Assembly: GCA_007922225.1 (NCBI GenBank)
Contig: ML679956.1
Coordinates: 70,858,111 to 70,922,110, forward strand
Direction of reading: 5' to 3'
From: Emydura subglobosa
Lineage: Eukaryota; Chordata; Testudines; Chelidae
DNA length: 64,000 nucleotides
Under the pieces are notes generated by a model. It was not told the DNA's origin, did no database searches, and saw nothing but the letters and a program-made list of their open reading frames with translations. The translations under genes were made by a program, and so were the position numbers. Positions within the stretch are counted from its first letter, which is position 1. Each line of letters opens with the position of its first letter. Positions 1 to 58,425 of the stretch are shown piece by piece.

Positions 1-480
1 GGCCGCAAACTTCGCCACGGTCCTTGACGAAGGTATCATAGTGGCTAGGGCAGCGCTGCAAACCTCCAGTGATGCTGCGGACTCAGTGAGCAGGACAATA
101 GCCTCCACCATAGGCTGAAGTCCTTGGGGCTGTCGCAGGAGGTGTAGCAGTCCATTCAGGACCTCCCCTTTGACGGGTCGGGCCTGTTTTCAGACAAGAC
201 TGATGAGAAGCTGCATGGCTTTAAAGACTCTAGGGCCATGCTTCGCTCCCTGGGCCTGTATGTGCCCCAGGCTTCTAGGCAGCAGTCATGGCTCCAGGTA
301 CAGCAGCAGCCAAAGCCCCGCCTAGGCCCTTCCAGCCCCACAGGGGCAGGGACAGAAATAGGGGGTTTGGAAGGCAAAATCGGCCCCCTAGCTCGTCCTC
401 AGCCTCCCATCAGGGGCCTCCCAAGGGGGCAGGTAATTGAAAGGGGCAATTTTGATGGTGCACCCGAGGGTGGCACCCCT
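1..480 (+). pseudogene. DIRS gag C-terminal fragment (copy A)
   Basis: The first half-kilobase translates, with frame breaks, into the C-terminal part of DIRS gag. Visible pieces include AALQTSSDAAD and LGLYVPQA, each with a close counterpart in copy C (AALQSSSDATD, LGLYVPQA). The gag N-terminus lies outside the window. A Gln/Pro/Arg-rich tail follows, as in copy C. In DIRS elements this protein is thought to form the particle. Here it is broken and has no start codon in the window. Confidence 0.75.
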
Positions 481-489
481 GCTGTCTCC

Positions 490-2366
490 CTGGATTCGTC
501 CCAACCCTTCCTGGACAGATTAAGATCCTTCTATGCGGAATGGGCAAGCATTACGTCAGACTGTTGGGTCCTTGGGATAGTCCTTCGGGCTATGCCCTAC
601 AATTTGCATCACCCCCCCTCCAACAGCCCCCTCCCCCATCCCTCTTCAGGAACCCCTCTCATGAGCAACTCCTCTTGCATGAGGTGGTCACCCTCCTCAA
701 CCTGGGAGCAGTGGAAATCTTCCCCCAAGACAAGAAAGGGGAGGGGTTCTATTTGAGATACTTCCTCATTCCCAAGGCAAAGGTGGGTCTGAGACCCATA
801 TTAGACTTGCGTCGTCTAAACAAATACATCAAACGACTCAGGTTTCACATGGTCTCCCTATTCTCCATTATCCCTTCTCTGGATCCAGGGGACTGGTATG
901 CCACCCTTGACCTCAAGGACGCATACTTTCATGGGTCTATCCTTCCCAGCCACAGGCGCTTCCTTCGTTTCACGGTGGCTAGTTCCCATTACCAATTTAC
1001 AGCCCTACCCTTTGGCCTCTCGTCGGCCCCCAGGGTATTCACCAAATGCATGGCGGTAGTGGCTACCCACCTGAGGCGCAGGGGTGTGCAGATCTTCCCT
1101 TACCTCGATGACTGGTTAATCAGGGGCACGTCCAGGTCCCACCTGCAGGACAGCGTGACCCTTACCTGCTCGATGTGCAGCAGGCTGGGACTGCTCATAA
1201 ATGAGCAGAAATCAACACTAACCCTGGTGCAGTGCATAGAATTCATTGGGGCCACCCTGGATGCTTCCCAGGCCAGAGCCTTCCTCCCACAACCTCGGTT
1301 CGAGGCTATGGCAGCGATTATCGCCCAGCTGCACCAGTGCCCCACAACAACAGCCAGGCACTGCCTACAGCTGTTAGGCCACATGGTAGCCTGCACATTT
1401 GTAGTGAGGTTAGCTCGCCTGAGGCTCAGGCCACTTCAGGCGTGGTTGGCCTAGGCATACGTGCCAAGCAGACACCCCTTGGACCAGGTGGTCACAGTTT
1501 CCCCGCTCGTCCTAGCCTCCCTAAACTGGTGGCGGACTCCCAGGGCAATGATGAGGGGGTCTCTTTCAGAGACCTGGCCCCATCGGTCACCCTGATCTCC
1601 AATGCCTCAGATGTGGGATGGGGAGCCCACATCAGCGCCAACCTGGACACTCAGAGGCTCTGGACGGGGGAGGAGAGGCACCTGCACATCAATGTAAAAG
1701 AGCTCAGGGCCATTCGACTAGCGTGCAAGGTGTTCCTCCAATTCCTGATGGGCAGGGTGGTGCAGGTGCTGATGGACAACCCCACAGCCATGTTCTATAT
1801 GAACAGGCAGGGGGCAATGTGCTCCTCGGCCCTCTGCCAGGAGACCACCCGCCTGTGGGACTTTGCAGTGAGGCACGACTTCCACTTGTCTGCCTCTCAC
1901 CTACCAGGGGTGAGGAATGACGAGGCGGATTGCCTCAGCAGGTCGTTCCTTCCCCCGCCACGACTGGTCGTTGCACCCGGAGGTCGTGATTTTGATCTTC
2001 CACAAGTGGGGTGTTCCCCAACTGGACTTGTTCACGTCGTCCTGGAACAAGAAGTGCCCAGGGTTGCGAGCCGGGTTCGATATCTGACGCATTCCTCATC
2101 GAATGGACGGGACCTTCATGTACACGTTTCCACCCATTCCGCTCCTGCCCAAAGTTCTCTTGAAAATCAAGAGGGACAGGGCGGACGTGATACTCATCGC
2201 CCTGGTCTGGCCAAGACATCATTGGTTCAGTATGCTGATGGACCTGTCGATAGCCCCGCCCGTGGAGCTCCCGAGACGGTACGACCTTCTCTCCCAGGAC
2301 TGCGGTCGCCTGCTACACCCGGACCTGGACTCCCTGCACCTCACGGTCTGGAGGCTCTGTGGCTGA
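490..2366 (+). pseudogene. DIRS reverse transcriptase and RNase H (copy A), frameshifted
   Basis: Bases 540-1454 are open and encode the RT palm: LDLKDAYFH (motif A), ALPFGLSSAPRVFTK (motif B) and FPYLDDWLI (motif C, YLDD at 1101-1112). After a frame change near 1450 the RNase H-like domain continues with ISNASDVGWG, NVKELRAI and LMDNPTAMFYMN. The first acidic residue of that domain is Asn here but Asp in copy C, so the RNase H would be inactive even without frameshifts. A segment ending in WRLCG and a stop at about 2364 closes the ORF at the same point as in copy C. Confidence 0.85.
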
Positions 2367-3155
2367 CGGAGGGAGAAAGAGCCTGCTCAGCGCAGGTACA
2401 AGAAGTCCTGCTGGGCAGCAGAAAACCTTCAACACAGGTCATGTATCGGGCTAAGTGGAAGCGGTTTACCTGCTGGGCAGAGTCCCGGGGTATTCCTCCA
2501 AGCCTCTCTCCTATACAGGCGATCTTGGAGTATTTGCTCCAGCTAAGGCTTCAGGGTCTGGCACTGGCCTCCCTGAGGGTCCACCTGGCGGCATTTTGGC
2601 CTTCCATCAGCCACTAGAGGGGAGATCCCTGTTCTCCCACCCCATGTCGGTCAGGTTCCTCAAGGGGGTGGAGCCCTTTATCCGCAGGTCCATGACCCAG
2701 TGCCTCCCTGGGATCTCAACCTGGTCCTCTCTAGACTCACGGGGCCCCCCTTTGAGGGCTTCATGCCCCCCTACTTATCCTTTCATTGAAGGTAGCCTTC
2801 CTGGTGGCCATTACCTCAGCTAGGAGGGTCTCCGAGATTAGATCCTTGACCTCGGAGCCCCCCTATACTGTATTCTATAAGGATAAGATGCAGTTGAGGC
2901 CGCATCCAGCCTTCCTGCCCAAGGTGGTTTCCCAGTTTCATTATAACCAAGATATATTTCTCCCCGTGTTTTTTCCCAAACCACATGGTTCGGAGGAGGA
3001 GCAGAGATGGCATTCACTGGATGTAAGATGAGCCCTGGCCTACTAAATGGAGAGGACAAAGCTGTTCCAGAAATTGACGCAGCTCTTAGTCACAGTGGTG
3101 GACCGGATGAAAGGATCACCTGTCTCCTGTCTACTCTTAGGAAATTATCTGGAAA
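2360..3155 (+). pseudogene. DIRS tyrosine recombinase, N-terminal two thirds (copy A)
   Basis: The reading frame differs from that of the RNase H segment, as in copy C. It shows ERACSAQVQEVLLGSRKPST, then, in shifted frames, ITSARRVSEIRSLTSEPP, which holds the first catalytic Arg of the tyrosine recombinase fold. After that comes a partial match to the RALAFYIDHTRPFRK region of copy C. The H-x-x-R box and the Tyr nucleophile are missing because the element ends near 3155. Frame breaks near 2620 and 2780 also disable it. Confidence 0.8.
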
Positions 3156-4416: not shown

Positions 4417-7400
4417 GTAAGTTATAATTAGAGGATTTGAGTTGGGAGAGGGCAGGTGGTTGGTTTTCCTGAATAACTGCTGGAGCCTAGGGCATCTCTG
4501 TTGTTTCTCCACAATTTACAACTGTACCATCAGTGTTACCTCCTTTTAACTGAGCTGGGCTAGACAAGGATCCCCTGAGAATCTGTCAGATTGATTATCT
4601 ACCAGAAAATCTGATTTTAAGCAAAGGGAGTCTTTCACCACAAGCGATGAGTATGTTGCTACTGTAGCACTACAGTGCAGAGGAGTGGGGGGGGGGGGGG
4701 AGAGAGACTGGGAATCAAACTAGGTCTCTTGCATGGGTGTCTCTGTATTTGTTGGTGTGTTTATATATGATAGAATTGAATTCAAGTGGGATATACCACA
4801 CTAAAGCACTTTCAGTTTGTGAGAAATCTCATCATATTCACATTCATATTCCAGCATGAATCATTGACAATGTGTGAGTTCATGTGGAAGAACATAGAAT
4901 TTGGTTTTAGGCTGTGCCTTTTGTATGTAAGTTATCTCACAAAGAGTTTTTTAAATATCGAGTGAAGCATTAGCACTGTAGTGGTTGTGCTGCTGAACAG
5001 CTCAAGAGCTCAGTTCACAGGTAATCTTGGATATTCAAGATCAGGTTTTATTGAAGGAGGGATTATTCAGGACACTAGAAACATGCCCTGCTCATTCCAG
5101 AAAGTGCAATGAGATCTTCAGCAGCCATTGGTAAAAGAGAGATTGTTTAACATTCCATAAAGAGGTCAGCACTTCTAAGGCTGTTTAAACGAGGATTGTT
5201 TTCCTAAAATTTTCCATCATTCAAAATTCTAATGTAGAATGGGGCTCCAGCATTTTAATAAAAATAATTGCAAATTCATAGAATAGATCTTGAACCTACT
5301 ACTGGGTAGTCCAGACATTTCCTTTAAAAGGATCCAAAATAAAACCATTTACTATTTTTAATTCCTTTATGTGCTTGTGTGTTTTGAGGAGCTGGGATGG
5401 AAAGGTCTGCATGGTGCAGTAAGAAAGTTTCCTTTTTTTAAAGTCACCATTTAAAGATCAATATAAACCTGAAAGAAAAACTTCCTGCTCTCACATTCCA
5501 AAGTGCTTTAACCACAGTTTCTTTTTCGAGTGCTTGCTCATGTCCGGTCCATGCGAGATGTGTGTGCACGCCATATGCACCGGTGCTGGAGATTTTTCCC
5601 TCAGTCAGCTCTAGTGCCCTCTGCAGCAGTATGCACACATACCGGTATATAGGGCACTGCCAGTCCCCCACCCTCTCAGTTCCTTCTTACCACCTATGAT
5701 GGTGCTGGAATGTCCTTGTCTCGGCAAGCACTTAAGTGGGATTTTTTCTGTCTTGCATTTCTGCATATAGTTTTAATAAATCAAATGAGTGTTTTCATAG
5801 TAATAGTTAGTAGTTCTAGGGATTAAGTGTTCTCTGCTCATGGGGTAGCTAAGGGGATGGGGCATGCCCCGGTCCGTGGGCTTCAAGCCATGTGCAACCT
5901 GTAAAAAATCTATGCCCATTAATGATTCTTACCAGGGCTGCCTTTAGAGTCTGGGTAAAGCTCATATCGGGGGCAAGTGCAGGATCTGCAGGAACTTTAG
6001 ACACAGCATGAAGAAGGACCATGACATCAGGTTGAGAGTGCTCCTGATGGAATCGGCCCTTAGGCCAGTATCCAAGCCCAGCCTCTCAGACTCAGCGGCT
6101 AGTACATCAGTGTTGATCTGAAGCACCCCCCCCCGGCACCAAGTTCATCACAGCACTGATTGCCATCCCTGCTGCTGAAGAAACAGCATACGAAGACTTC
6201 GCACACCGAAAGAGGGCACTTCCCGCCTGAGCAAAGCAAATCGGGAGCAGGGAACAAGTCGAGACCCGAGCTGGGCTGCTCATCTCCTCTGGAACTCGGG
6301 GCAGCTGTAGCCTCACTCCATGGAGCTCCCAACCCACTCCAGGACCCGCCTCCTACACCTGGTAGTGGCAGAGGCCCTTAGCACTTGACAGTGCCTTCCA
6401 ACCCTTGAGGCCTTCCAGGCAGCAACGGGCTTACTGGTGCTTCCGTTACCGCCTACCCCTCGGGACAACAGACCCGCGTGCCAGGCCAATCGGCCAAGAG
6501 CAAGTCCAATGGGCAAGTTCATGATGAGGGTCCCACTCGGATCTCCAGTATCGCAGCACCACTCACCATCTCTGTGGCACCCCCTACCAATGCCTCACAA
6601 TTGCCGGAACCTCAGTCACCATCTCACAACAGCCGCAGACCAGACCCCAGGCACCGTTCACCGGACCCCCAGTACTGATCGCCAGAAGTCTAGTACAGAA
6701 CACTGATCCCTGGACTTGAAGTGGTGTTTGCCGGCACGCTGACAGTCCAGGGAATCGCGGCACCGATCACCAGAATCTCAGTGCCACTCCCTGGCACTGG
6801 AGCACCATGCTCGGTGCCCTAAGAAACCAGAGGCAAGATTGGCGTTGCCTTGGTCCTTTGCTTTGGAGTCGGAGGGGGATGAAGGTCCCTTTCACAGGGG
6901 CCATGAGTACCCAGCCATGCCTGCTGGGTTTCCCACGCCCTACCACTGGGCTCTTGGCCACCAACTCAATCGACTGGACCTTGGCATTTCTGGAACCGAT
7001 GGGGATTTCCACTGGTTCCGGGTTCCCAGCATCGATCCGTCTCTGGGACCTCAGAAAGATGCTCTGTGACAGTGTCTAGGCCACCCCCAAATTCTGATGA
7101 AGATCTGAGTCAGGCAGAGGAAACACTGGTCACCCACCCGGAGGAAGAGACCCTGGTGGTGGGGAAACAGTTACCTACTCCTCCCCTATCAGCATCCTCA
7201 TCCTCATCACCTGATGAGGCCGTAGCGGGACCTTCCAACACAGTTCCCCAGGAAGATTTTAGGGCCCACCAACAGCTCATCAAACAAGCTGCAGCCAATC
7301 TGGGCTTGGAGGTGGAGGAGCTAAAAGAGCCGCTGATTCGCTATTCAACATCCTGGCAGCGGCAGCACCAACTAAAGTGGCCCTCCCTATCCATGAAGGG

Positions 7401-10400
7401 GTCATCAAGTTGGTGAAGGCCTTAAGGCAGAACCCCTCCTCACTGCCCCCAACATCCAAATGGGAGGAGAAAAAATACTATGTGCCCGCTAAAGACTTTG
7501 AGTATCTCCACTCCCACTCATCCCCGGGATCACTGGTAGTGTGAGCAGCGAATGAGAGCAATAGACCGGGACAATCAAGCTCAACCCCTAAGAGTAAGGA
7601 GGCAGAGAAACTAGACCTCTTTAGGCACAAAATTTATTCAGCTGCCAGTCTCCAACTTCATATATTGAATCAGCAAGAATTGCCATTTACATAAACATAA
7701 GCAGTTACAGAAGGTTAGTAACCGTCTGTTCTTTCATAACTGAAAAAGTTATCTGAACCCTCAGTATTGCCTAATTGGTTGCCGTGTGCAGCACAAGTTT
7801 GTAGCTGACGTTAAACTAAACTGACTAACCCCAGTTAAGGATCCTTATGACAAACTGCATTCATTTCTTGCTAGGGGCAATTTCTGGAAGCCCTCCGAGC
7901 TATGTGGTTCACAATGATATGTTAACAGAGCGAATAATTGGAGGACAGGAGGCCCAGCGAAACAGCTGGAAATGGCAGGTAAAATTTTTATTTGAAATCT
8001 TCTGCTTAGTAAAAAAAAAAAAAAAAAAAGGCCTGAGAACATGACAGCAAATCAGAAATATGGAATATCAGATATGGATGAATTTTCTCTCATGCTAGTC
8101 AAGGCAAACATACAACTTTATTTAAACCTCTCAATCCAGCACGTTAATAAGAAACAGAAGCTGGGATTCACAAAGTATCCCTTGACTGCACCATCAAGGA
8201 TCTTTGCTTGAGGTAGTTTGATACCAACACTTTAGAAAAACAGTGTCTCCAAAATCCCATATAAGATTAAACTAATAGAGCTTTGACTAGGGTGCATTTT
8301 CCTAGGAGAGGATTTTTTTCTTATAGTTTTTTTTAAAATTATTATTCTGATCAGAAGAGTGAGTATCTTAAAAATGGTACCTCCTTACTGACGTCTGCTT
8401 CTTGTATGTCTCGTAAGTCATTTCTTCTTGCTTCATTGTCAAAAATACATTTTTGCTATTTTTTTTAACTCCTATTAGCACCAGAGAATTAATAAAGCTA
8501 TGGAAGAGTTAGCTGGATATTATTCTGGAATTTTGGGTCATCAGAATTTTTAGATGAGTTCCAGCATCTTTTATTACTCTCGGGCTTTGTCTTTACTAGG
8601 GAAAAGATGTTAGTTAACATGTGTTAAAATCCAAGAATAAACAAGGCAAGTTATAGTTTTAACATGTGTTAGTTGTGGAGGTAAACCGTAGGCTCCACTA
8701 ATTTACTTCAATCAACTAACACATGTTAAAACTATTACTGTGTTGTCTACATTAGGATTCTAATACATGTTAAAAGGGACCTTTGTTTCCTAGTGTGGAC
8801 ATGGCTGCAATTCAAGAAAGATGTTAGTAAACTGGGAGAGAATTCAGAGAGGAGCCACAAGAATGATTAAAGGATTAAAACACGCTTTACAGTGATAGAC
8901 TCTAAGAGCTCAATATATTTATCTTAAGAAAGAGAAGGTTAAGGGGTGATTCAATTACAGTCTAAAAGTATCTACATGGGGAACAAATATTTAATAATGG
9001 ACTCTTCAATCTAGTAGAGAAAGGTATAACATGATCCAATAGCTGGAAGTTAAAGCTAGACAGATTCAGACTGGAAATAAGGTGTAGATTGTTTACAAGG
9101 AGGGTAATTAACCATTGGAACAATTTACAAGTGTTGTGGTGGATTCTTCATCACTGACCATTTTTATTTCAAGAATGGATGTTTTCCTAAAAAATCTGCT
9201 CTAGGAATTATTTTCAGGAAGTATTATTGGCCTGTGTTATACAGGAGGTCAGACTAGATGATCACAATGATCCCTTCTGGCCTTGGAATCTATTAATCAT
9301 TGAAAACCATCATGACTTTAAGATCTCACTTGTGTTCCTAGGCCCAGCATTTAGAAAAAAAAATCTTATTATTTGTAAACTATGTTATTTAATATGGAAA
9401 CCCCTGAGAGGCAATAAGCATGGAATCTTTTGATGCCATTTTTAAAGTTACTTTTTCAGAATGTATATGCATTTTAACAAACTTAATTTCCGTTTAACAA
9501 ACATTTATGTTCAGTAAAAGGCTGTGACTCCCAATCTTTGTCTACATGCAGAGGTTGCATTAGTCTAACTACAATCTGTTTTTAAATCAATTTAGTTAAA
9601 TGAGTACAAACCACTGTGTGTGGACATACTGAAATCTGTTTACAACTACCTTATGTCTATTATCTTAATTCAGTAACTAACATAACTAGCCATTTTAGAA
9701 TATCATCACAGAAATAAGCTGAAATAGAACTTTTGGCATAGTGAAACTAAGTCTTGAAGAAGATAGTCTGAATATACGTTGCTTAAGAATAATAGGCGTG
9801 ATGTACAAATGTGGCTAGCATTTTAAATTATTAGGTTGCTACCACTGATATCTCATATTCAAATGTCCCAGATAATACTTAATCGTACCATAAAACCACA
9901 ACACGAAATTTTTAATGCACTGTATAGGCAAAAAATTCCCATAGCATGATACACTGCCACAGTAACAATAACAAAATTAGGAACAATTAAAAGTGTCAGC
10001 AAGCAATGATTTTCAGTCCCCTTTTAAATAAAAATACAAACCAGGAATTTTAAATGGTTAGAAGTGTTCAACGTAGGCATTTATACTACATTTACAATTA
10101 TTCTACGTTTGAGAAGTATATTTACAGAAAAAGAAACCCTATTGTAGAGTAAAGTCAGGGCAAAATACTAGGAAAATATAAAGCAAGATATAAGCACTTA
10201 TTAAATGCTGTTATTGCTTATGATTTCACCCAAGATACTATTCTAATATAAATATTAAATAAATTGATGAATTTTAAATGGAAACTGTACTCAAGTTACT
10301 GATGATTCCCTTATTTAAGCTACTTTGTACATGTTCTACATAATATCTTATGATATTTTTGCACTCTGGACCTTAGTTACTTGACCTTTAATATAACAAA

Positions 10401-13400: not shown

Positions 13401-15506
13401 TGACATTGCCTTGCTGCACCTCTCTCAGCCTGCCTATGATAATGGCTTTGTTGAGATAGGAAATCTTCCGCCTGAAGGAGACATTTTGCCTAATAATTAT
13501 CCATGTTATGTTACTGGATGGGGACTGACTAGTGGTAAGTGGAAAAAAAGTTGCTCCTCATTCCAAAAAGATTGCCACAGATCAGAGACCCAGCACAGCT
13601 CTTTTTGTAAATAAAACCTGTTGCTATATGATATCTTTAAGCCCTACTTCGACAGCTTATGTAGAACGTAAGTGGTTCATGGGTCTTCTAAAAGCTCTCT
13701 GCAGGGGCGAATGCCACGATAAGCTCTTGTTATCACACGATGCATTTTCCCAGCACAAACATTTCTTACTAGCATGAGGTTAAACACTGTTTAGCGCACT
13801 GTGTGGACAAGCCCTGCTGTGTTTAACATGTCAGTGATAGTGGTTCATCCTGAGATCCGCCCTAGGATTGACCATGGCCAGCTATCATGATTTAAGTGGT
13901 AAAAACTTATTTTAATCACTAAACTCAGCAGATCTGACTGACTAGACACAGGGAGGAGAGCCCAGGAGTGAGCAGCGGGGGATATTACCCTCATTCTGGG
14001 CCCAATCCTGCTATGGTTACACTGAGTCGTACTTTACTCAGTGAGTAGTCCGGCTGATCTTAATGGAACTAGTCATGCATAGTAAGGTACTACTGAACAT
14101 GAATAAGGGTGGCAGAGGTGGGCCTTTATTTTTTAATGATAGTGGCTCTTTGAGCAGAATATTGTCCTTTCTCCTTTAGTTGGTGGCAGCATTCCTGCTA
14201 GACTTCAAGAAGCAATGCTCCCAGTAGTTGACCATGCCATCTGCTCTGAGAATGACTGGTGGGGCTCTCAAGCAAAGGAGAATATGGTGTGTGCTGGTGG
14301 AGATGGCGTGAGGTCAGGGTGCAGTGTAAGTGCCATATTTTCTGGGATTTCTCAATCCTTTATCTTTTTCCCCTTAACTCTTTCTTTCCTATACAACCCT
14401 ACTACTATCGGAATTGTGAATGACTTACAACACACTCCTTCCAATGCTTGTGGCGTCTCAGCAGTTCAAACCTTCCTGACAAGCTAACTACGTCTTCGTG
14501 AGCATCATCCTCTTAATTATTATTGTTCCTAATTGCCCCCTCCCACGAGAGAACCCATGGGAAGGGGATAAAGGAAAGGAAAGCTCCAAGGTTCTCACTG
14601 CACACTTTTCTCCCCAACTGTTCTCAGGGTGGGCAAGGTTTGCCCTCTCACCAGCACATTCCTTTGATCAGATCCTGGGAATCAGTGGTAGGCCAGGGCC
14701 CCGTGCCTCCATTGCAGCTATGCAGTAAAGGCTTTGGCAGCCCCCAATAACCCTCATAAAGGGACTTCCTCACTGCAGAGGAGCAGAGCTGCAGAGAAGT
14801 ATTACAGCTTCTGGAGGTGTTACCTTTCCATCCTAACTCTATGTGGCCACATGCCCCTGGCCTTGCTCCTATGCTTCCTACTCCTCCCCTGCCCTGCTCA
14901 CTCCTCCCATATGGGTACTGAGAGCCCCTGGCTGGCCCCAGTTATGGGGGAACAAAAAGGTGGTGTAAAACCCTGGGTCAGCTGGACCGAACAATCAAGG
15001 CAAATAATTCTCTCTGCAAATGCTGTGAAATAGAAATCATCTCCAAATCTATTAGCTTCCCTGTGGAAATGGTGCACAACCCTATAAACAAGGGACTATA
15101 CGTTTTGTTTTGACTATATATTCAATATGCATTAAAAAGGAACCTGAATAAACCCAGGGCTTTAAGATCCAGCAGGAGCCTATAGTCTGTTTTTCTTTCA
15201 CTTCTATTATTTTAATTATAGCCCCTCTTGTGCTGCTATCTCTTTAAATACACTGGCTGTCACTTTCAGTGACCTGGAATTTGTCCCAGCATGGGAAGAA
15301 TTAGAACATTCCTGGTTGAATACGGGAGCTGCTAGAAGCTGAAGCTTTCTGCAGGGGTCAAATACCTGAGGAGTGTTCTGATTCATTTAGAGCCTAGTCT
15401 TTGGATTGAACTCAGTAGGTATCTTTTCATGGACTTCAATAGGCATTGGATAAGTGCCTTAAACATCAATTCTGTTGAATGGGAGGGGTCAGAAAGAGTT
15501 ATCTTG

Positions 15507-21549: not shown

Positions 21550-21846
21550 TTACTTCTTGTAATGAGATAACCATTCCAAGTCCCTATTTAGACCCAATCT
21601 GATTGTGTCAAGTTTGCATACGAGTTCCATCTCTGCAATTTCTCGCTGAAGTCTGTTTTTGAAGTTTTTTTGTTGAAGAATGCCAACTTTCAAGTCAGCT
21701 ATACAGTGTCCTGGGAGATTGAAGTGCTCTCCTACTGGCTTATGGATGTTACCATTTTTTATGTCTGATTTGTGTCCATTTATTCTTTTGCGTAGTGACA
21801 ATCCAGTTTGGTCAATGTACATGGCAGAGGGGCATTGCTGGCACAT
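21550..21846 (-). pseudogene. Penelope-like GIY-YIG endonuclease fragment
   Basis: 98 open residues with CQQCPSAMYIDQTGLSLRKR, then INGHKSDIKN, EHFNLPGH and KNRLQREIAEMELV. This is the Penelope-type GIY-YIG module with its Arg and Glu segments. The usual YIG is YID here. It ends in HYKK and a stop, the natural end of the ORF. Confidence 0.85.
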
Positions 21847-21857
21847 GATGGCATATA

Positions 21858-22439
21858 TTACATTATTAGATGTGCAGGTGAATGAGCTCCTGATGGTGTG
21901 GCTGATGTGGTTAGGACCTGTGATGATGTCACTAGAGTCAATGTGCGGGCAGAGTTGGCAATGGGGTTTGTTGCAGGGATAGTTCCTGGGTTAGTGTTCT
22001 TTTTGTATGGTGTACGGTTGCTGGTGAGTATTTGCTTCAGGTTGGGGGGTTGTCTGTAAGCAAGGATAGGCCTGCCTCCTACGTCTTGAGCGAGTGAGGG
22101 ATCATCTTCTAGGATAGGTTGTAGATCCTTAATGATGTGTTGGAGAGATTTTATCTGGGGATTGTAGGTGATGGCCAGTGGTGTTCTGTTGTTTTCTTTG
22201 TTGGGTCTGTCCTGTAGTAGGTGACTACTGGGTACCCGTCTGGTTCTGTCAATTTGTTTCTTCACCTCCCCAAGTGGGTACTGTAGTTTTAAGAATGTTT
22301 TATGGAGATCCTGTAGGTGTTTGTCTCTGTCTGAGGGATCAGAGCAAATCCGGTTGTATCTTAGGGCTTGGCTTAGACAATAGATTGTGTAATGTGTCCA
22401 GGGTGGAAGCTGGAGGCATGAAGGTATGTATTGCAGTAA
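21858..22439 (-). pseudogene. Penelope-like element linker between RT and endonuclease
   Basis: A 135-residue open segment (RRVPSSHLLQDRPNKENNRT, DLQPILEDDPSLAQDVGGRP) represents the RT thumb and linker that precedes the endonuclease. It ends at a frameshift near 21858. Confidence 0.75.
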
Positions 22440-23311
22440 GTTGGTTTTCAGTATAGAGTGGTATTAATGTGACCATCCCTTATTTGTATTGTAGTGTCCA
22501 GGAAGTGGATTTCTTGTGTGGACTGGTCCAGGCTGAGGTAGATGGTGGGGTGGATGTTGGTGTAGAGAGCTTCTACATCCATAGTGGCTAGGATGGTGTT
22601 TTCTGGAAGATCACCGATGGACTGTAGTTTTCTCAGGAAGTCAGTGGTATCACGAAGATAGCTAGGAGTGCTGGTGGCATAAGGCCTGAGGAGAGAGTCC
22701 ACATAGCCTGACAGTCCTGCTGTGAGAGTGCCAATGCCTGAGATGATGGGGCGTCCAGGATTCCCGGATCTGTGGATCTTGGGTAGTAGATAGAATAACC
22801 CTGGTCGGAGCTCAGGGGGTGTCTGTGTAGATTTGTTCCTGTGTTTCTTTAGGGAGTTTCTTAAGTAGATGTTGTAGTTTCTTTTGGTATTCCTCAGTGG
22901 GATTGGGCAGTAGTGGCTTGGAGAATGTGGTGTTGGAGAGTTGTCCGGCAGCCTCCTGTTCGTAATCCAACCTATTCATGAGGAGTACAGCACCTCCTTT
23001 GTCAGCCTCTTTGATTATAATGTCAGGGTTGTTATTAAGGCTGTGGATGGCGTTGCGTTTTGCATGGCTGAGGTTCTGGGGCAAGCGATGTTGCTTGTCT
23101 ACAATCTCAGTTTGTGCACGTCGTGGAAACACTCTATGTAAAAGTCTAGCCTGTTGTTTCGACCATCAGAAGGAGTCCATGCAGAATTCTTCTTGTAGCG
23201 TTGGTAGGAAGGTACCTGTGGGTTATTGTGTTGTTCAGTGGTGTGGTGGAAATATTCCTTGAGTCGGAGATGGCGAAAGTAGGATTCCAGGTCACCGCAG
23301 AACTGTATCAT
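22440..23311 (-). pseudogene. Penelope-like RT with catalytic core deleted
   Basis: Open segments read IIKEADKGGAVLLMNRLDYE, then LPKIH-type sequence in a shifted frame, then SIGDLPENTILATMDVEALY, which is RT motif A with its Asp. Straight after ALYTNIHP, at about 22550, the sequence jumps to STQEIHFLDTTIQIRDGHIN. In intact family members, motif B and the catalytic DD motif lie between these two points. The missing part removes the active site. Confidence 0.85.
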
Positions 23312-52056: not shown

Positions 52057-52280
52057 AAAACAAGGTTACTTACCAGTAACTGTTGTTCTTCGAGATGTGT
52101 TGCTCATATCCATTCCAATATAGGTGAGTGCGCGCCCCGTGCACGAGCCTCCGGAAGCTTTTCTGCCCCTAGTAACCCCCTGCGGGTCGGCTCCTGCGCC
52201 CCCTGGAGTACCACGCTCATGTCGCGGTATATAGGGACCCTGCCGACCCCGTGGCCCCCAGTCCCTTCTTTCTGCCGACT
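52057..52280. repeat. DIRS copy C inverted terminal repeat (element 3' end)
   Basis: Inverse of 58244-58425 with small differences, for example a gain of about 10 bases near 52135. Contains the TATATAGGGACCC and CAATATAGGTGAGTGCGCG words. The outermost 30 bases (AAAACAAGGTTACTTACCAG and beyond) occur at this end only. Confidence 0.92.
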
Positions 52281-52307
52281 CCGATAGCGGGGACGGAGGG
52301 CGGGTTT

Positions 52308-52409
52308 GGAATGGATATGAGCAACACATCTCGAAGAACAACAGTTACTGGTAAGTAACCTTGTTTTCTCTCTTCGAGTGTTTGCTCATATGCATTCCAA
52401 TATAGGTGA
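52308..52409. repeat. DIRS internal complementary region
   Basis: 52308-52363 is a perfect 56-base inverse of the left tip 52061-52116, and 52365-52409 is a perfect 45-base inverse of the right tip 58381-58425. The two halves meet at TTTT. In DIRS-1 models this region templates joining of the two ends into a circle. Perfect matching implies recent activity or a recently fixed copy. Confidence 0.93.
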
Positions 52410-52441
52410 TTATGTAGCCATACCATGGAGGCGGGTAGGAG

Positions 52442-53296
52442 TCACTGTTGAGTAGCCCTTCTTAGGACGTCTCTGCCTACAGCTACGTCGTCTCTTGCCT
52501 GTTGGACGATGGCGTAATGGGAAGAGAAGGTATGGACAGATGACCAGGTTGCTGCCCTGCAAATATCCGTCAGGGGCACCCGCTCCAGGAAGGCCGCTGA
52601 CGAGGCCTGGGCTCTGGTCGAGTGTGCCGTCACTGTACTGGGAAGCAGCACCTTTGCCTGATCGTAACAGGTGCGGATACATGCGGTAATCCACGCAGAG
52701 ATGCGCTGAGAAGAGACAAGTAAGCCCCTCATTCTTTCAGCAACCACGACGAACAGTTGGATTGTCTTCCTGAATGGCCTTGTATGGTCGATGTAAAAGG
52801 CCAGAGCCCTCCTGACATCCAGGGACTGCCATCTCTGCTCCGCCTCCGATCCGTGCGGTTTGGGAAAGAACACGGGGAGGAAGATGTCTTGGTTACAGTG
52901 AAACTGAGACACCACCTTGGGTAAAAAGGCTTGGTGGGGTCTCAGCCGCACTTTGTCCTTATAGAAGACAGTGTAAGGGGGCTCCGAGGTCAAGGCCTTC
53001 AACTCGGAGACCCGTCTGGCCGAAGTAATGGCTACCAGGAAGGCCACCTTCCAGGACAGGACTAGCAAAGGGCATGTAGCCATGGGTTCAAATGGGTGTC
53101 CTGTTAACATGGCGAGAACCAAGTTCAGGTCCCAGAGAGGTACCGGGTCACGAACCTGCGGGTATAATCTCTCTATCCCTTTCAGGAACCTACAGGACAT
53201 AGGATGAGAGAAAATAGACCTCCCTTCCATCGGCCGGTGGAAGGCCGAGATGGCCGCCAGGTGTACCCTCAGGGAGGCCAGTGCGAGGCCCTGCAT
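52442..53296 (-). CDS. DIRS tyrosine recombinase (copy C), C-terminal open part
   Basis: 284 open residues cover the catalytic domain. Arg94/Arg95 (ITSARRVSELKAL) supply the first Arg, His225-x-x-Arg228 (TAHSTRAQASSAAF) the central box, Trp251 the HxW-like position and Tyr261 (HTFSSHYAI) the nucleophile. All catalytic residues are present. The natural ORF starts further upstream in the same frame (from about 53821, with ERACSAQVQQVLLGSRKPST) and is cut by TGA at 53387. The start used here is only the next in-frame Met. The protein would integrate the circular DNA copy. Confidence 0.85.
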   Translation of the reverse strand: MQGLALASLRVHLAAISAFHRPMEGRSIFSHPMSCRFLKGIERLYPQVRDPVPLWDLNLVLAMLTGHPFEPMATCPLLVLSWKVAFLVAITSARRVSELKALTSEPPYTVFYKDKVRLRPHQAFLPKVVSQFHCNQDIFLPVFFPKPHGSEAEQRWQSLDVRRALAFYIDHTRPFRKTIQLFVVVAERMRGLLVSSQRISAWITACIRTCYDQAKVLLPSTVTAHSTRAQASSAAFLERVPLTDICRAATWSSVHTFSSHYAIVQQARDDVAVGRDVLRRATQQ

Positions 53297-53386
53297 CTTT
53301 AAGTGTAGGAGGTACTCTAGGATCGCCTGTATGGGCGATGAGGTAGGTAAGATCCCCCTGGACTCAGCCCAAAAGGTAAAGCGCTT

Positions 53387-53821
53387 TCACTTAGCCTTAT
53401 ACAGCACCTGAGTGGAAGGTTTCCTGCTCCCTAGGAGAACCTGCTGTACTTGTGCTGAGCAGGCTCTCTCCCACTCAGTTAACCACAGAGCCTCCATGCC
53501 GTCAAGTGGAGGGAGTCCAGGTCCGGGTGTAGAAGACGGCCCCGGTCCTGGGAGAGGAGGTCGTATCGCGTCGGGAGCGGTATCGGCTTGGCAATGGACA
53601 TGTCCAGTAGCATAGTGAACCAGTGTTGCCGGGGCCAGGCTGGTGCAATGAGAATAACGTTCGCCTTGTCCCTCTTGATTTTCAGGAGCACTCTGGGGAG
53701 TAAGGGGACGGGGGGAAACGCGTACATCAGGGGCCCCGTCCAGTCTATTAGAAAGGCGTCTGAGAGGGAGCCCTGCTCTCGTCCCCGGAGTGAGCAGAAC
53801 CTCTGGCACTTCTTGTTCCAC
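53387..53821 (-). pseudogene. DIRS recombinase ORF, N-terminal part, cut by a stop
   Basis: 144 open residues in the recombinase frame, overlapping the RNase H ORF in a different frame. It ends at TGA where copy A reads Trp (YRAKWKRF versus YKAK-stop). The 5' part before about 53530 may be only the overlap region of the two frames. Confidence 0.65.
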
Positions 53822-53994
53822 GCAGAGGTGAACAGGTCAAGTTGGGGAGTGCCCCACTTGTGAAAGAGAAAAGACACCACCTCCTTGTGGAGTGACCAGT
53901 CGTGGCGGGGTAAGAACGACCTGCTGAGGCGGTCCGCCTCGTCGTTCCTGACCCCGGGGAGGTGAGAGGCAGAAAGGTGAAAATCGTGCCTCAC
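53479..53994 (-). CDS. DIRS pol C-terminal part (RNase H end and downstream domain), copy C
   Basis: Continuation of pol after the C12 frame break: MRHDFHLSASHLPGVRNDEA (RNase H end with its last Asp region), then TSAWNKKCQRFCSLRG and LIAPAWPRQHWFTMLLDMSI, ending in HLTAWRLCG and a stop. Copy A ends at the same place with LTVWRLCG. The function of the segment after RNase H is not known to me; it is present in many DIRS pol proteins. Confidence 0.8.
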   Translation of the reverse strand: MRHDFHLSASHLPGVRNDEADRLSRSFLPRHDWSLHKEVVSFLFHKWGTPQLDLFTSAWNKKCQRFCSLRGREQGSLSDAFLIDWTGPLMYAFPPVPLLPRVLLKIKRDKANVILIAPAWPRQHWFTMLLDMSIAKPIPLPTRYDLLSQDRGRLLHPDLDSLHLTAWRLCG

Positions 53995-55315
53995 CGCAAG
54001 GTCCCATAGCTGTATGGCTTCCTGGCACAGAGTGGAGGAGCGTGCCCCCCCCCCCCGGCCTGTTTATATAAAACATGGCTGCTGTATTGTCCGTGAGAAC
54101 ATGTACTGCTCTGCCCGTTAGGAACCTGAGGAAGACCTTGCAGGTGAGACGAACTGCACGTAGCTCCCTGACATTGATATGAAGGTGCAGCTCGTGTGGC
54201 GACCATAGACCTTGTGTGCTGAGGACGCGGCTCATGTGGGCTCTCCAGCCCACATCGGAAGCGTCCGTTATCAGCGTCACTGATGGGGTTAAGTCTGCAA
54301 AGGGAACCCCCCGAAGAACCTCGCTCGGGTCTGTCCACCAGTTGAGGGATGTTAGGACCTGGGCTGGGATGGTGACCACCCTGGAAAGCGAATGTCTGGA
54401 TGGGGTGTACACTGAGGTTAGCCAACCTTGAAGGGGCCTGAGTTTGAGGCGAGCTAGTCTCACCACATATGTACATGCCACCATGTGACCCGACAGCTGA
54501 AGGCAGCGCCTGGCTGTCGTCGTGGGAAATCTGAATAACTCCTGAATGATGGCGGTCATGGTCTGGAATCTGGCCAGGGGGAGGAAAGCCCTGGCTTGGA
54601 CTGCATCTAGGGTGGCTCCGATGAAGTCTATCCGCTGTACTGGGGTAAGTGTGGACTTCTGCTCGTTGATGAGCAGGCTCAGCCTGGTGCAGGTTGTGCA
54701 GGTCAGGGCTAGACTGTTCTGTACGTGAAGCCTGGATCTTCCCCGTATTAACCAATCATCGAGATAGGGGAAGATCTGGACGCCTCTGCGGCGGAGGTGG
54801 GCGGCTACCACCGCCATACACTTCGTGAAAACCCTGGGTGCTGAGGAGAGGCCAAACGGTAGGGCCGAAAATTGGTAGTGGACGCCCGCTACCATAAAAC
54901 GAAGAAAACGTCGGTGCCCAGGGAGGATGGAAACGTGGAAGTAAGCGTCTTGTAAATCGAGGGCAGCATACCAATCCCCTGGATCCAGAGCGGGAATGAT
55001 GGAGGCTAGGGAGAGCATACGGAACTTGAGGCGTCTGATAAATCTGTTCAGACGACGCAGGTCTAGAATAGGCCTGAGGCCTCCCTTTGCCTTGGGGATA
55101 AGGAAATAACGGGAATAGTTCCCGAGGGAGGAACTTCCTCTACCGCCCCGAGGCGGAGAAGAGAGTGAACCTCTTGGACGAGGAGTAGCTCGTGAGATGG
55201 GTCCCTGAAGAGGGACGGGGTAGGTGGAGAGTCCGGTGGGAATGCCGAGAGTTGGAGAGCATAGCCTCGACTCACTACGCTGAGCACCCAGTGGTCCGAG
55301 GTTATTCCCTGCCAC
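53837..55315 (-). CDS. DIRS reverse transcriptase and RNase H (copy C), frame-broken at both ends
   Basis: About 490 residues. The N-terminal 65 are out of register (see the frame at 55063-55611). RT proper starts at SRYFLIPKAKGGLRPILDL. Motif A LDLQDAYFH (119-127), motif B ALPFGLSSAPRVFTK (151-165), motif C YLDD (184-187). RNase H: LITDASDVGW with its Asp, NVRELRAV with its Glu, LTDNTAAMFYIN with its Asp. At the C12 run (54045-54056, G on the coding strand) the frame is lost and the remaining residues are nonsense. Confidence 0.88.
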   Translation of the reverse strand: MAGNNLGPLGAQRSESRLCSPTLGIPTGLSTYPVPLQGPISRATPRPRGSLSSPPRGGRGSSSLGNYSRYFLIPKAKGGLRPILDLRRLNRFIRRLKFRMLSLASIIPALDPGDWYAALDLQDAYFHVSILPGHRRFLRFMVAGVHYQFSALPFGLSSAPRVFTKCMAVVAAHLRRRGVQIFPYLDDWLIRGRSRLHVQNSLALTCTTCTRLSLLINEQKSTLTPVQRIDFIGATLDAVQARAFLPLARFQTMTAIIQELFRFPTTTARRCLQLSGHMVACTYVVRLARLKLRPLQGWLTSVYTPSRHSLSRVVTIPAQVLTSLNWWTDPSEVLRGVPFADLTPSVTLITDASDVGWRAHMSRVLSTQGLWSPHELHLHINVRELRAVRLTCKVFLRFLTGRAVHVLTDNTAAMFYINRPGGGGTLLHSVPGSHTAMGPCGEARFSPFCLSPPRGQERRGGPPQQVVLTPPRLVTPQGGGVFSLSQVGHSPT

Positions 55316-55611
55316 TCTCGGAGGAAGGGATGCAGGCTGTTCATAAAGGGGAGAGTGGAAACCGGTGGGATGGTGATTGTAAAGGAGCTGCCCTCGAGCG
55401 TCCCGTCAAAAGGACCGCTTGTTGTTTTTCTGCTGCTAGCCCTGCTGGGAGCCCTCTGCAGGGCCTTGGCGGTCTCGGTGGTTCGACTGCCTAAAGCGTT
55501 CACGGCCTCGCCTAGATGGAGTGGGTCGAGGAGGCAGTCGAGAGGCAGGCTGCTGTTGCTGCTGCCGTTGGGGTCGCTGTCTGCCCTGGCGCCTTGTGGC
55601 CTGTGGCACAT
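55063..55611 (-). CDS. DIRS pol N-terminal region (copy C)
   Basis: The open frame overlaps the end of gag by about 175 nt. Residues EWQGITSDHWVLSVVSRGYA and LFRDPSHELLLVQEVHSLLR match the region before the RT in copy A (EWASITSDCWVL, LFRNPSHEQLLLHEV). A one-base frame difference near 55120 separates it from the RT frame. I cannot tell from one copy whether this is a mutation; copy A is continuous here, which favours mutation. Confidence 0.75.
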   Translation of the reverse strand: MCHRPQGARADSDPNGSSNSSLPLDCLLDPLHLGEAVNALGSRTTETAKALQRAPSRASSRKTTSGPFDGTLEGSSFTITIPPVSTLPFMNSLHPFLREWQGITSDHWVLSVVSRGYALQLSAFPPDSPPTPSLFRDPSHELLLVQEVHSLLRLGAVEEVPPSGTIPVISLSPRQREASGLF

Positions 55612-56107
55612 AGAGGCCTAAAGACTTAAGGGTGGCTCGAGAATCCTTGAGGGCGTGTAATTTACTGTCTGTTCTGTCCGAGAACAGGCCCACGCCCTCA
55701 AAAGGCAGATCCTGGATGGCCTGTTGCACCTCCAACGACAGGCCAGAAGACTGCAGCCACGCCGACCGGCGCATCACGATGCCCGATGCCATGGCCCTTC
55801 CCGCCGCGTCGGTGGCATCGCTTGAGGACTGAAGGGCCGCTCCTGCGACTGTCGCTCCCTCCTGCAGGATGGTGTTAAAGTCCTCCGCCATGTCAGATGG
55901 TAGAGTGCGGAGGAACCGTTGGAGGGAAGCCCACAGGTTTAGATTATACCTGCCCAGGAGCGCTTGGTGGTTTGCAATGCGTAGCTGTAAAGCCGCAGTC
56001 GAATAAATTTTTCTCTCGAATAAGTCCAGTTTTTTGTTCTCTTTACTCTTTGGCGTACTGGACTGGGCCCCCTGTCTGTCCCGTTGATTGACCGCATCTA
56101 CAACCAA
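55436..56107 (-). CDS. DIRS gag C-terminal domain (copy C)
   Basis: 223 open residues: KKLDLFERKIYSTAALQLRI, LRTLPSDMAEDFNTI, SSSDATDAAGRAMASGIVMR, LEVQQAIQDLPFEG, ending in a Gln- and Arg-rich tail. This domain is the one related to the LAP2-alpha C-terminal region of mammalian TMPO, which is known to be a co-opted DIRS-like gag. Separated from the 649-residue ORF by one base at the C9 run. Copy B has no C run and reads through, so the break is probably an indel. Confidence 0.82.
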   Translation of the reverse strand: MVVDAVNQRDRQGAQSSTPKSKENKKLDLFERKIYSTAALQLRIANHQALLGRYNLNLWASLQRFLRTLPSDMAEDFNTILQEGATVAGAALQSSSDATDAAGRAMASGIVMRRSAWLQSSGLSLEVQQAIQDLPFEGVGLFSDRTDSKLHALKDSRATLKSLGLYVPQATRRQGRQRPQRQQQQQPASRLPPRPTPSRRGRERFRQSNHRDRQGPAEGSQQG

Positions 56108-58047
56108 CGACCCGGGGGGGGGTGGTTGTAGAGGTATTCGAACCCCTGGGAGGGAACGTAGTACTTGCGCTCCGCAGTCTTAGAGGTGGCAGACACTGAA
56201 GCTGGAGTCTCCCACAGGGGCTTGACCACCTTCAACACCCTGTCATGGACAGGGAGCGCGACGCGGGAGGGGCCTGCTGAGCTCGAGGTCCTGAAGAGAG
56301 GATCCTCCTCCTCCGAAAGTTCTTTGAGGTCTAGCTGTAGGTTGTCAGCTAACCGTCTGAGCAGTTCCTGATGAGTCTTGTAATCAGGAAGGGGTGTTCT
56401 CTGGTCCCTAGAGGTGGTGTCCGGAGGAGAGGAGGAGGAGGACTGGTGAAGAGGACCCGTAGAAGGACCCTCCATAGGGTCGGACCCATCGTCCGAGGAG
56501 TCCGGTCTGTCCTGACTAGGAGGTGGGGGCGGGGGCTGGACGGCCACTGATGGAACCGACGCCGTGCCCTGGGTTGGTTGTTGAGGCCATGGCCCCCAAT
56601 AGGGCCATTGGCAGGGCCCCTGCATCCACGCCGGCACCGGTCCCGGTGCCGCGGACGTTGCCGGCCCGCATGGTGCCGGGCTGCGCGATTTCGGGCGCTT
56701 CCCCTTGTCCTTGCCACGATCCGGCAGTGATCTGCTCCTGGAGGAGCGGGAGCGGCTGTGGCAGTATCTGCGATGCCGGCGAGGAGGGGAACGGCTGGAG
56801 CTAGACGAGTGTCCCCGGGACCTCCTGTCTCTGCGGCGGTCAGGCGCTGGTGACCTAGAGCGGTCTCTCCCTCGGCTGTGTCTTCTCCGGTGCCCCGGAG
56901 AGTCCCTGGGTGCCAAGGCATGCGGTGCCGGGGACCGCCTCGGGCTAATTCTGGGGGCCCTTGCCGACGGTGAGCGGTGGTAGGGCTCCGGAGCAGGGGG
57001 ACCCCGATGGCTGCCAGCGGATCGGGAGCGGTGGCTGTCCCGGGAACGCGCGCGGGCCCGGACCGGAGATCTTGATCGGTGCCGAGAGCCCGACCGGTGC
57101 CGAGAGCTGGATCGGTGCCGGTCATCTCTAGGTGAGGGCGTTCGGTGCCGGGAGCTGCGCACCGGGGAGCGAGAGCGCCTCTGCTCCGCAGGCGAGCCGG
57201 ATCGGTGCCGAGAGCCAGGTGACCGGTGCCGAGAGGTGCGCACCGAAGTGCGAGGATGGTCAGTCTCTCTCGGTGCTGGCTGGCTGTCCTGATGGTGGTG
57301 GGACACCGAGGATCTGGAGGCCGATGGAGAGTGGCTGTTCTCGGAACCTCTAGACCGCTCCCGTTGCTGCGGTACCGAGGTGCTCAATGACCTAAGGTTG
57401 GAGCGAGGAGGGGGAGACTCCACTTCCCCCGTCCTCGACCGTCTGGGGGGAGACGATGGTTCCTGTCTCCGCTGCCCACCGGGGTAATCCAGCGCGGATC
57501 TACCCCGAGACGCCAACCCTGACTCCCTTGGCCGAGGGGGGGATGGAGGCGTCGGCATGGCCATGAGAGCCCGTGCCGCTACAAACGCCTCCAGCGTCGA
57601 CGGCCCTTGCAGGAGAGGTCCCCCACCCCCCGGGGTCGGGGGAGGCTCCCTGCGTGGCGACGCCTGTGTCGGCTCTGGTTGTACCCCCTGCTGTACCGGT
57701 AGCAGGGGGGAGTCCATAGACACAGGCTCCAGCCGCTTCTTTTTCTTCGGCACCTTGTGCGCCGGTGCCGCTGCCAGTGCCGGGGGCGCGCTGTGCGCTG
57801 ATGAGATGCTCGGTGCCGATGGAGACCCCGAGGGCTCGGAGACCGGACGAAGCGCCAACTCCATCAGGATCGTCCGAAGGTGGGCATCTCGCTCCTTCTG
57901 CGTCCTGGGCTTGAAGGACTTGCAGATACGGCACTTGTCCTTCCTGTGAAGTTCGCCCAGGCAGCGAAGACAGCGATCGTGCGGGTCGCTGATCGGGAAA
58001 GCCTTAGAGCATTCCGCGCAGGCTTTGAACCCCGAAGTGCCCGGCAT
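56098..58047 (-). CDS. DIRS gag-like protein (copy C), N-terminal and SR-rich part
   Basis: 649 residues from an ATG at 58047. Three CxxC pairs at 10-13, 26-29 and 39-42 (CAEC, CLRC, CRIC) form a probable zinc-binding head. A Pro/Ser-rich stretch follows, then about residues 190-460 rich in Arg-Ser and His-Arg-Ser units (SRHRSGSRHRSRSPVRARA) like SR splicing proteins, then an acidic Ser/Asp segment (SSDDGSDP). The reading ends 3 residues after the C9 run with GRWL, where the frame leaves the gag C-terminal domain. The leader from the element end to the ATG is 378 nt. Confidence 0.88.
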   Translation of the reverse strand: MPGTSGFKACAECSKAFPISDPHDRCLRCLGELHRKDKCRICKSFKPRTQKERDAHLRTILMELALRPVSEPSGSPSAPSISSAHSAPPALAAAPAHKVPKKKKRLEPVSMDSPLLPVQQGVQPEPTQASPRREPPPTPGGGGPLLQGPSTLEAFVAARALMAMPTPPSPPRPRESGLASRGRSALDYPGGQRRQEPSSPPRRSRTGEVESPPPRSNLRSLSTSVPQQRERSRGSENSHSPSASRSSVSHHHQDSQPAPRETDHPRTSVRTSRHRSPGSRHRSGSPAEQRRSRSPVRSSRHRTPSPRDDRHRSSSRHRSGSRHRSRSPVRARARSRDSHRSRSAGSHRGPPAPEPYHRSPSARAPRISPRRSPAPHALAPRDSPGHRRRHSRGRDRSRSPAPDRRRDRRSRGHSSSSSRSPPRRHRRYCHSRSRSSRSRSLPDRGKDKGKRPKSRSPAPCGPATSAAPGPVPAWMQGPCQWPYWGPWPQQPTQGTASVPSVAVQPPPPPPSQDRPDSSDDGSDPMEGPSTGPLHQSSSSSPPDTTSRDQRTPLPDYKTHQELLRRLADNLQLDLKELSEEEDPLFRTSSSAGPSRVALPVHDRVLKVVKPLWETPASVSATSKTAERKYYVPSQGFEYLYNHPPPGRWL

Positions 58048-58243
58048 GGCGCCGGGAGCCCGTAAGGGCTAACTAACTACTTAAACTACTAAAACAATTT
58101 CAAATTTTTTTTTTTTTTTTTAAACTATTAAGGTTAAAACTATGAACTTTAACAACAACTAACTAACAACTATAAAACTAGAAGGGTTTAGGAGATTGCT
58201 ACTTGCGGTAAAGCAAGGGGCAGAGTTCCAAAAGACCGTCACG

Positions 58244-58425
58244 GGCGGAAAGAAGGAACTGGGGGCCACGGGGTCGGCAGGGTCCCTATATACCGCGACA
58301 TGAGCGCGGCACTCCAGGGGGCGCAGGAGCCGACCCGCAGGGGGTTGCTAGGGGCAGAAAAGCTTCCGGAGGCCGCGCACTCACCTATATTGGAATGCAT
58401 ATGAGCAAACACTCGAAGAGAGAAA
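58244..58425. repeat. DIRS copy C inverted terminal repeat (element 5' end)
   Basis: Counterpart of 52088-52280. Contains GGGTCCCTATATACCGCG and ends ACACTCGAAGAGAGAAA. A TATATA motif within the repeat could serve transcription start, as terminal repeats carry the promoter in this group; that role is inferred. Confidence 0.92.

What the first reader, a model, noticed from the sequence alone, without database searches (positions are those of the whole stretch)
52057..58425. Near-intact DIRS retrotransposon with complete terminal architecture
Both inverted terminal repeats, a perfect internal complementary region and every catalytic motif of RT (YLDD), RNase H and tyrosine recombinase (R, H-x-x-R, Y) are present in one 6.37-kb copy. 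Only four small lesions are seen, and two lie at C homopolymers. Complete DIRS copies are uncommon in amniotes, so this suggests recent activity in the lineage.
Basis: partly seen in the sequence, partly recalled or inferred. Interest (0 to 1): 0.75.

Follow-up and report, generated by a model that had tools for sequence, protein, structure and literature searches.

The report
Young DIRS retrotransposon in a side-necked turtle
This is a complete but broken copy of a DIRS-type jumping gene in a turtle closely related to the side-necked turtle Emydura, part of a large family that multiplied fairly recently; elements of this kind are already known from turtles and lizards, so it is a good example of a known kind.

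Summary
Window 52057-58424 (minus strand, 6368 bp) is a full-length DIRS1-like retrotransposon: inverted terminal repeats, two internal complementary regions meeting at a circle junction, gag with a LAP2alpha domain, RT, RNase H, methyltransferase, and a tyrosine recombinase whose predicted fold matches Cre. Four lesions break gag, pol (twice) and the recombinase frame. In the host genome (a turtle close to Emydura by RAG1) the junction occurs at 953 places, 20 of 20 fetched close copies reach both ends, and the window copy sits in a supported young clade (nearest relative 1.4% at non-CpG sites), not on a long private branch. Between-subgroup dN/dS of 0.07-0.46 shows that source elements were functional. 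But 0 of 21 copies examined has all three genes whole, the youngest subgroup is not the window's, and DIRS elements are not rare in sauropsids (775 copies detected in Anolis by a tool for well-conserved elements). The most unusual detail: in copies with pol in one frame, the overlapping recombinase frame stays open far beyond chance while its amino acids drift. Long ORF overlaps are on record, so this is a new member of a known kind.

The parts
52057..58424 (-). whole DIRS1-like element, 6368 bp
   Evidence: 20 of 20 fetched copies reach both ends; ends read base by base in 19 of 20
58381..58424 (-). left terminus (outer part of left ITR), complementary to left ICR
   Evidence: 45 nt 100%; 0 mismatches of 43
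58244..58378 (-). left conserved ITR
   Evidence: 6 mismatches of 135 to right ITR, 2 of which are in all 21 copies
56098..58068 (-). gag, 5' part (656 codons stop to stop; SR/RH-rich repeats), runs out of frame near 56112
55436..56179 (-). gag, 3' part with LAP2alpha domain (about 55676-56077)
   Evidence: Pfam PF11560 1.4e-7, above cut-off
55063..55617 (-). pol, N-terminal part of RT in its own frame
53837..55405 (-). pol, RT (RVT_1 about 54608-55099, YLDD) and start of RNase H, up to the C-run at 54047-54058
   Evidence: Pfam; homologues in turtles
53479..54063 (-). pol, end of RNase H and Dam-like methyltransferase (about 53602-53904)
   Evidence: Pfam PF05869 1.7e-4, below cut-off
53387..53836 (-). 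recombinase frame upstream of the in-frame stop, overlapping pol
52442..53386 (-). tyrosine recombinase (R124/R125, K157, H255-x-x-R258, W281, Y291)
52367..52409 (-). left ICR
52306..52368 (-). right ICR; meets left ICR at the AA(A) circle junction, about 52365-52368
   Evidence: junction at 953 genomic places
52140..52276 (-). right conserved ITR
52057..52118 (-). right terminus with right extension (about 30 nt)

Best explanation
A full-length, now broken copy of a DIRS1-like retrotransposon family in a turtle close to Emydura. Inferred cycle, after the published DIRS model: the element is transcribed and reverse transcribed by its RT/RNase H; the two cDNA ends anneal side by side to the internal complementary regions and are joined into a circle with an AA(A) junction; the Cre-like tyrosine recombinase inserts the circle at a genomic TT, preferably GTT on the element's coding strand, without target-site duplication. 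Shown here: anatomy, ends, absence of junction repeats of 4 bp or more, target preference, number and age structure of copies, past selection on the proteins. Inferred: transcription, circle formation, recombination. The family multiplied in several subgroups; the window copy inserted during one of the younger ones and then collected four frame-breaking lesions.
For: Anatomy and domains; recombinase fold and conserved residues; 953 junction places at up to 3 mismatches of 49, control 0; 20 of 20 fetched copies reach both ends, one with an internal deletion of about 950 bp; 0 of 18 distinct loci with a junction repeat of 4 bp or more, one with 3 bp; C outside the right end in 12 of 18 (expected 0.17-0.20, p 3e-6 to 3e-5); tree and distances; between-subgroup dN/dS 0.07-0.46 against 0.26-0.72 within (16 of 21 rows used).
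Against: RNase H and methyltransferase matches are below Pfam cut-offs and the YR has no relevant Pfam match. No fully open copy among 21. No transcript or circle evidence. Copies were chosen by similarity to the window's YR end, so truncated and distant copies are under-sampled. No empty site could be compared: the left flank is single-copy in the assembly. The window itself lacks the preferred base outside its right end (A, not C).
Confidence: 0.95

Rival explanations
1. A long-dead fossil kept near-intact by chance, with no recent amplification in the lineage.
For: Four lesions in the window copy; 0 of 21 copies with all three genes whole; turtles evolve slowly (PMC4054807, passages), so low divergence can still mean millions of years.
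Against: Nearest copy 1.43% away at non-CpG sites, another subgroup 0.6-1.4% among its members; 14 other places at 96-97% over the YR piece; supported nested subgroups.
Confidence: 0.1
2. The frame breaks, two at C/G homopolymers, are assembly errors and the copy is really open.
For: Two of four breaks lie in homopolymers whose length varies among copies; the single indel between the presumed haplotigs L009 and L011 is at a homopolymer, and their G-runs at the gag break site differ by one.
Against: That pair differs by 9 substitutions and one indel in 8.4 kb, so indel noise is low overall. The recombinase break is an in-frame stop codon, and the break near 55.1 kb is, by eye, not in a long homopolymer.
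Confidence: 0.05
3. A PAT-like, Ngaro-like or other tyrosine-recombinase element rather than DIRS1-like.
For: All share RT plus YR (recalled, and PMC3266345).
Against: Inverted, not split direct, termini; ICRs present; methyltransferase-like domain present.
Confidence: 0.01
4. The family entered this turtle lineage by horizontal transfer.
For: None positive; the best-scoring protein relatives are only 61% (RT) and 68% (YR) identical, up to 64% and 73% over part of the query.
Against: The named relatives among the first eight RT hits and the first twelve YR hits are all turtles; lizards, Latimeria and amphibians follow, roughly as expected of vertical descent. Only 120 of 861 and 120 of 255 hits were listed.
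Confidence: 0.03

Closest known systems
DIRS1-like retrotransposons of Anolis (AcDIRS1, AcDIRS2; PMC3266345 Table 3)
   Same: Size about 6 kb, right extension only, conserved ITR about 136-140 nt, ICR arms 39-60 nt; AcDIRS2 has an AAA junction and a long ORF overlap
   Different: Here 6368 bp with a long SR-rich gag; junction best read as AA(A) with G preferred before TT. Sequences of AcDIRS1/2 were not compared
DIRS1-like elements of cryptodire turtles (Chelydra, Gopherus, Pelodiscus, Chrysemys; PMC4495291; Gopherus agassizii in PMC3266345 Table 1)
   Same: Recombinase 52-73% identical; LAP2alpha gag, RT, RNase H and integrase domains reported in painted turtle
   Different: A separate family; best-scoring relatives 61% (RT) and 68% (YR) in the protein collection searched
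DIRS-like families of Xenopus (PMC9210276, passages)
   Same: LAP2alpha in ORF1, RT/RH/MT, ITR/ICR layout, ORF2/ORF3 overlap, young amplification waves
   Different: Host; Xenopus recombinases in the listing are 41-43% identical
Mammalian LAP2alpha (TMPO) and ZNF451 domains
   Same: Reported to descend from a DIRS1-like gag (PMC4495291, passages); the window gag matches the Pfam model
   Different: Domesticated host exons, not mobile

Membership tests
DIRS1-like retrotransposon | Inverted terminal repeats | tested here: met
DIRS1-like retrotransposon | Two ICRs complementary to the two ends, meeting at a short circle junction | tested here: met
DIRS1-like retrotransposon | RT and RNase H | tested here: met
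   RVT_1 2e-18; RT_RNaseH 8e-4 is below the curated cut-off (20 of 24.8 bits)
DIRS1-like retrotransposon | Methyltransferase domain after RNase H | tested here: met
   Dam 1.7e-4, below the curated cut-off (21.7 of 28.1 bits), in the expected place
DIRS1-like retrotransposon | Tyrosine recombinase with R, H-x-x-R, Y | tested here: met
DIRS1-like retrotransposon | No target-site duplication; NTT start | tested here: met
   0 of 18 distinct loci with a junction repeat of 4 bp or more; left terminus begins (N)TT, N = G in 12 of 18
DIRS1-like retrotransposon | RT tree placement among DIRS1-like elements | not tested
DIRS1-like retrotransposon | Circular DNA intermediate | not testable with these tools
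   needs DNA from germline tissue
PAT-like / Ngaro-like | Split direct repeats | tested here: not met
   termini are inverted
Ngaro-like / VIPER | No methyltransferase domain | tested here: not met
   Dam-like match, below cut-off

The most novel reading that the evidence does not exclude
The recombinase is made from an ORF of up to 990 codons whose first two thirds overlap about 90% of pol in another frame, and selection keeps that frame open without preserving its amino-acid sequence: a long dual-coding stretch that may give the recombinase an unstructured N-terminal arm. In 6 of 6 copies with pol in one frame (related, so not independent) the overlapping frame has 1-4 stops against 17-21 expected when synonymous codons are shuffled, 0 of 2000 shuffles as low in each; the other frame shows no depletion. 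The window's own RT piece gave 3 of 5000. Yet 29 of 34 fixed differences in RT between the window's subgroup and subgroup C are silent in pol and change the overlapping frame. Long ORF overlaps are already reported for half of 28 DIRS1-like elements (PMC3266345); what may be new is evidence that selection keeps the frame open. No literature search was made for such a test.
Probability: 0.5. Interest if true: 0.4.

Novelty: new member of a known kind. Interest (0 to 1): 0.25.

Why it matters
It documents a young, high-copy DIRS1-like family in a turtle close to Emydura, with ends and a target-site preference read from 18 distinct insertions. It offers a natural set of copies for testing how recombinase-carrying retrotransposons insert and why their recombinase and polymerase frames overlap, and its gag is a relative of the domain that mammals are reported to have co-opted in LAP2alpha.

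Tried and rejected
Self-dating by ITR and ICR mismatches: no correlation with tree end branches over 21 copies (rho -0.20, p 0.39). Two ITR mismatches (52263, 52273) are in all 21 copies and so inherited, which removes 2 of the window's 6. The other 4 of 135 (about 1.5% per arm) agree with the end branch; counting the ICR pairs too, 4 of 240 (about 0.8% per arm) is lower.

RNA editing or structure as a cause of ITR mismatches: considered because nearly all are transitions; rejected because G-T and A-C pairs are about equal: 53 and 48 of 104 cells, or 32 and 27 of 62 without the two fixed positions.

Copy number by DNA search gives only a lower bound (40 of 5232 candidates scored), so the junction pattern was used; it counts junctions, not complete copies. 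Host by mitochondrial COX1: only a broken nuclear copy was found; RAG1 was used. PDB sequence search and NCBIfam gave only weak or irrelevant matches for the recombinase. Empty-site test: left flank single-copy in this assembly. The dual-frame table for RT used the wrong second frame; one search replaces it. In the RNase H/MT piece 8 of 12 fixed differences between the window's subgroup and subgroup C were silent in pol and changed the recombinase frame. A paper on VIPER/TATE held none of the terms sought. That this family is not described in print rests on searches of an open-access library; two papers listed that hold the word Emydura together with DIRS (on a lizard and an oyster genome) were not opened, and Repbase was not available.

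Full report
What is there. The element lies on the minus strand, 52057-58424, 6368 bp. Reading in its own direction: left ITR (58424-58244), gag (58.05-55.44 kb), pol with RT, RNase H and a Dam-like methyltransferase, tyrosine recombinase, left and right ICR (52409-52306), right ITR and right extension (52276-52057). Inverted repeats were found and measured; domains. BLAST carries 20 of 20 fetched copies to both ends. Read base by base, the left end begins AAAACAAGG in 18 of 20 copies and in the window (two copies differ by one base), the right end reads GAAGAGAGAA in 19 of 19 located, and the flanks beyond differ between loci. The lengths of 18 of the 20 run from 6257 to 6464 bp; one has an internal deletion (5338 bp) and the right end of one was not located by that search, though BLAST reaches it.

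Lesions. Gag leaves its frame at a G-run near 56112-56123; RT changes frame near 55.1 kb; pol changes frame at the C-run 54047-54058; a stop codon sits at 53387-53389 in the recombinase frame. Among 21 rows (window plus 20 copies; 19 distinct loci, because L009/L011 and L012/L015 share flanks), the two gag markers lie in one ORF in 3, RT start and catalytic site in 15, RT and RNase H in 10, all of pol in 6, both recombinase markers in 13, and all three genes whole in 0. So the copy is like its kin: young, full length, broken.

Host. The assembly has 1.93 Gb in 1268 contigs. Its RAG1 is identical to that of Emydura macquarii at 1043 of 1047 residues; the next entry, Terrapene, is 95% identical (the collection is clustered at 90%, so other close species may be hidden). 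The host is therefore a turtle close to, and probably not the same as, E. macquarii. That Emydura is an Australasian chelid is recalled.

Copies and age. The 49-base circle junction occurs at 953 places with up to 3 mismatches, control 0; 65, the window included, are exact. A 991-base YR piece had 5232 candidates; the 40 scored were all 93% or more identical, 14 besides the window at 96-97%, two of these being second partners in presumed haplotig pairs. At non-CpG sites over four coding pieces the window copy is 1.4-1.6% from the other four rows of its clade, 1.9-2.6% from ten further copies, and 4.7-6.2% from the other six, three of which are only 0.8-1.1% apart. The tree puts it in a clade of five rows (100/99) with an end branch of 0.014, against a median of 0.0099; its place inside that clade is unsupported (85/18). 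With a neutral rate of 0.5-1.5e-9 per site and year (assumed; turtles are slow, PMC4054807, passages) half of 1.43% would be very roughly 5-15 million years; this is not calibrated. Subgroup A, with pairs at 0.6-1.4%, looks younger. One locus of that group is present on both of two presumed homologous contigs whose flanks differ at 15 of 1951 bases and elements at 78 of 6424 columns; if they are haplotypes, that insertion predates their split.

Selection. Between subgroups (five group pairs, 16 of 21 rows used, uncorrected proportions), dN/dS is 0.07-0.46 in gag, RT, RNase H/MT and YR; within two subgroups it is 0.26-0.72. The lineages that gave rise to the subgroups thus encoded working proteins, while copies drift after insertion. 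In each of the five pairs the lowest silent change is in one of the two pol pieces, where the recombinase frame overlaps.

Overlapping frames. In three copies the recombinase ORF is 990 codons; in two of these the pol ORF that holds the RT site ends 1933 bases after the recombinase ORF begins. In six of six copies with pol in one frame, that second frame has 1-4 stops where 17-21 are expected after shuffling synonymous codons, 0 of 2000 shuffles reaching the observed value, while the third frame is not depleted. Its amino acids are not kept: 29 of 34 fixed RT differences between the window's subgroup and subgroup C are silent in pol and change the overlapping frame. Some annotated recombinases of other turtles and of the gecko Eublepharis extend upstream in the same frame (annotation may favour open frames). 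Long overlaps are a known trait: half of 28 annotated DIRS1-like elements (PMC3266345, section 10 read in full).

Insertion. 0 of 18 distinct loci with both ends located has a junction repeat of 4 bp or more; one has 3 bp (only bases outside the shared ends were compared). The base outside the right end is C in 12 of 18, against 17-20% expected, that is, GTT on the coding strand. The window copy is one of the exceptions, with A. This fits the model in PMC3266345 (section 3 read in full): recombination between a short circle junction and an identical genomic sequence, without duplication.

Known or new. DIRS1-like elements are documented in Anolis with 775 sequences found by a tool made for well-conserved elements (passages), in Gopherus agassizii, in painted and softshell turtles (passages), and DIRS sequence makes up 3.22% of the Pelochelys cantorii assembly (passages). 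LAP2alpha gag is known from Xenopus DIRS (passages) and as the reported source of mammalian LAP2alpha. The window adds a family in a turtle close to Emydura.

Noticed in passing
window 113-3041: An older DIRS fragment on the opposite strand: 73.6% identical to the main element over 2.46 kb (627-3041) and a weaker piece at 113-280, with RVT_1 (7.6e-20) and RNase H matches.
   Followed up: partly
window 6907-7413: ORF that by eye resembles another DIRS-type gag; no Pfam match.
   Followed up: partly
window 21550-22975: ORFs that by eye look like a Penelope-like element; no Pfam match, so unconfirmed.
   Followed up: partly
window 14143-14484: Probable exon of a trypsin-like serine protease gene (Pfam Trypsin, 20.9 bits against cut-off 20.6).
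   Followed up: no
window 56098-58068: Gag 5' part holds short direct repeats (57047-57254) in an SR/RH-rich stretch, and the BLAST alignment of 6 of 20 copies breaks at about 57076-57202.
   Followed up: partly
L009/L011 and L012/L015: Contigs C10 and C11 (both 13.8 Mb) look like two haplotypes: about 0.1% different near 11.65 Mb but 0.8% (flanks) to 1.2% (element) near 0.47 Mb, each pair sharing a DIRS insertion; an old haplotype or sex-linked region is possible.
   Followed up: partly
L029: Broken nuclear copy of mitochondrial COX1 on contig C5; the family search scored 6 candidates and found no intact COX1 in the assembly.
   Followed up: no
window 52140-52276 / 58244-58378: Two ITR mismatches are identical in all 21 copies, so left and right ITR are not made identical at each round of copying.
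   Followed up: yes
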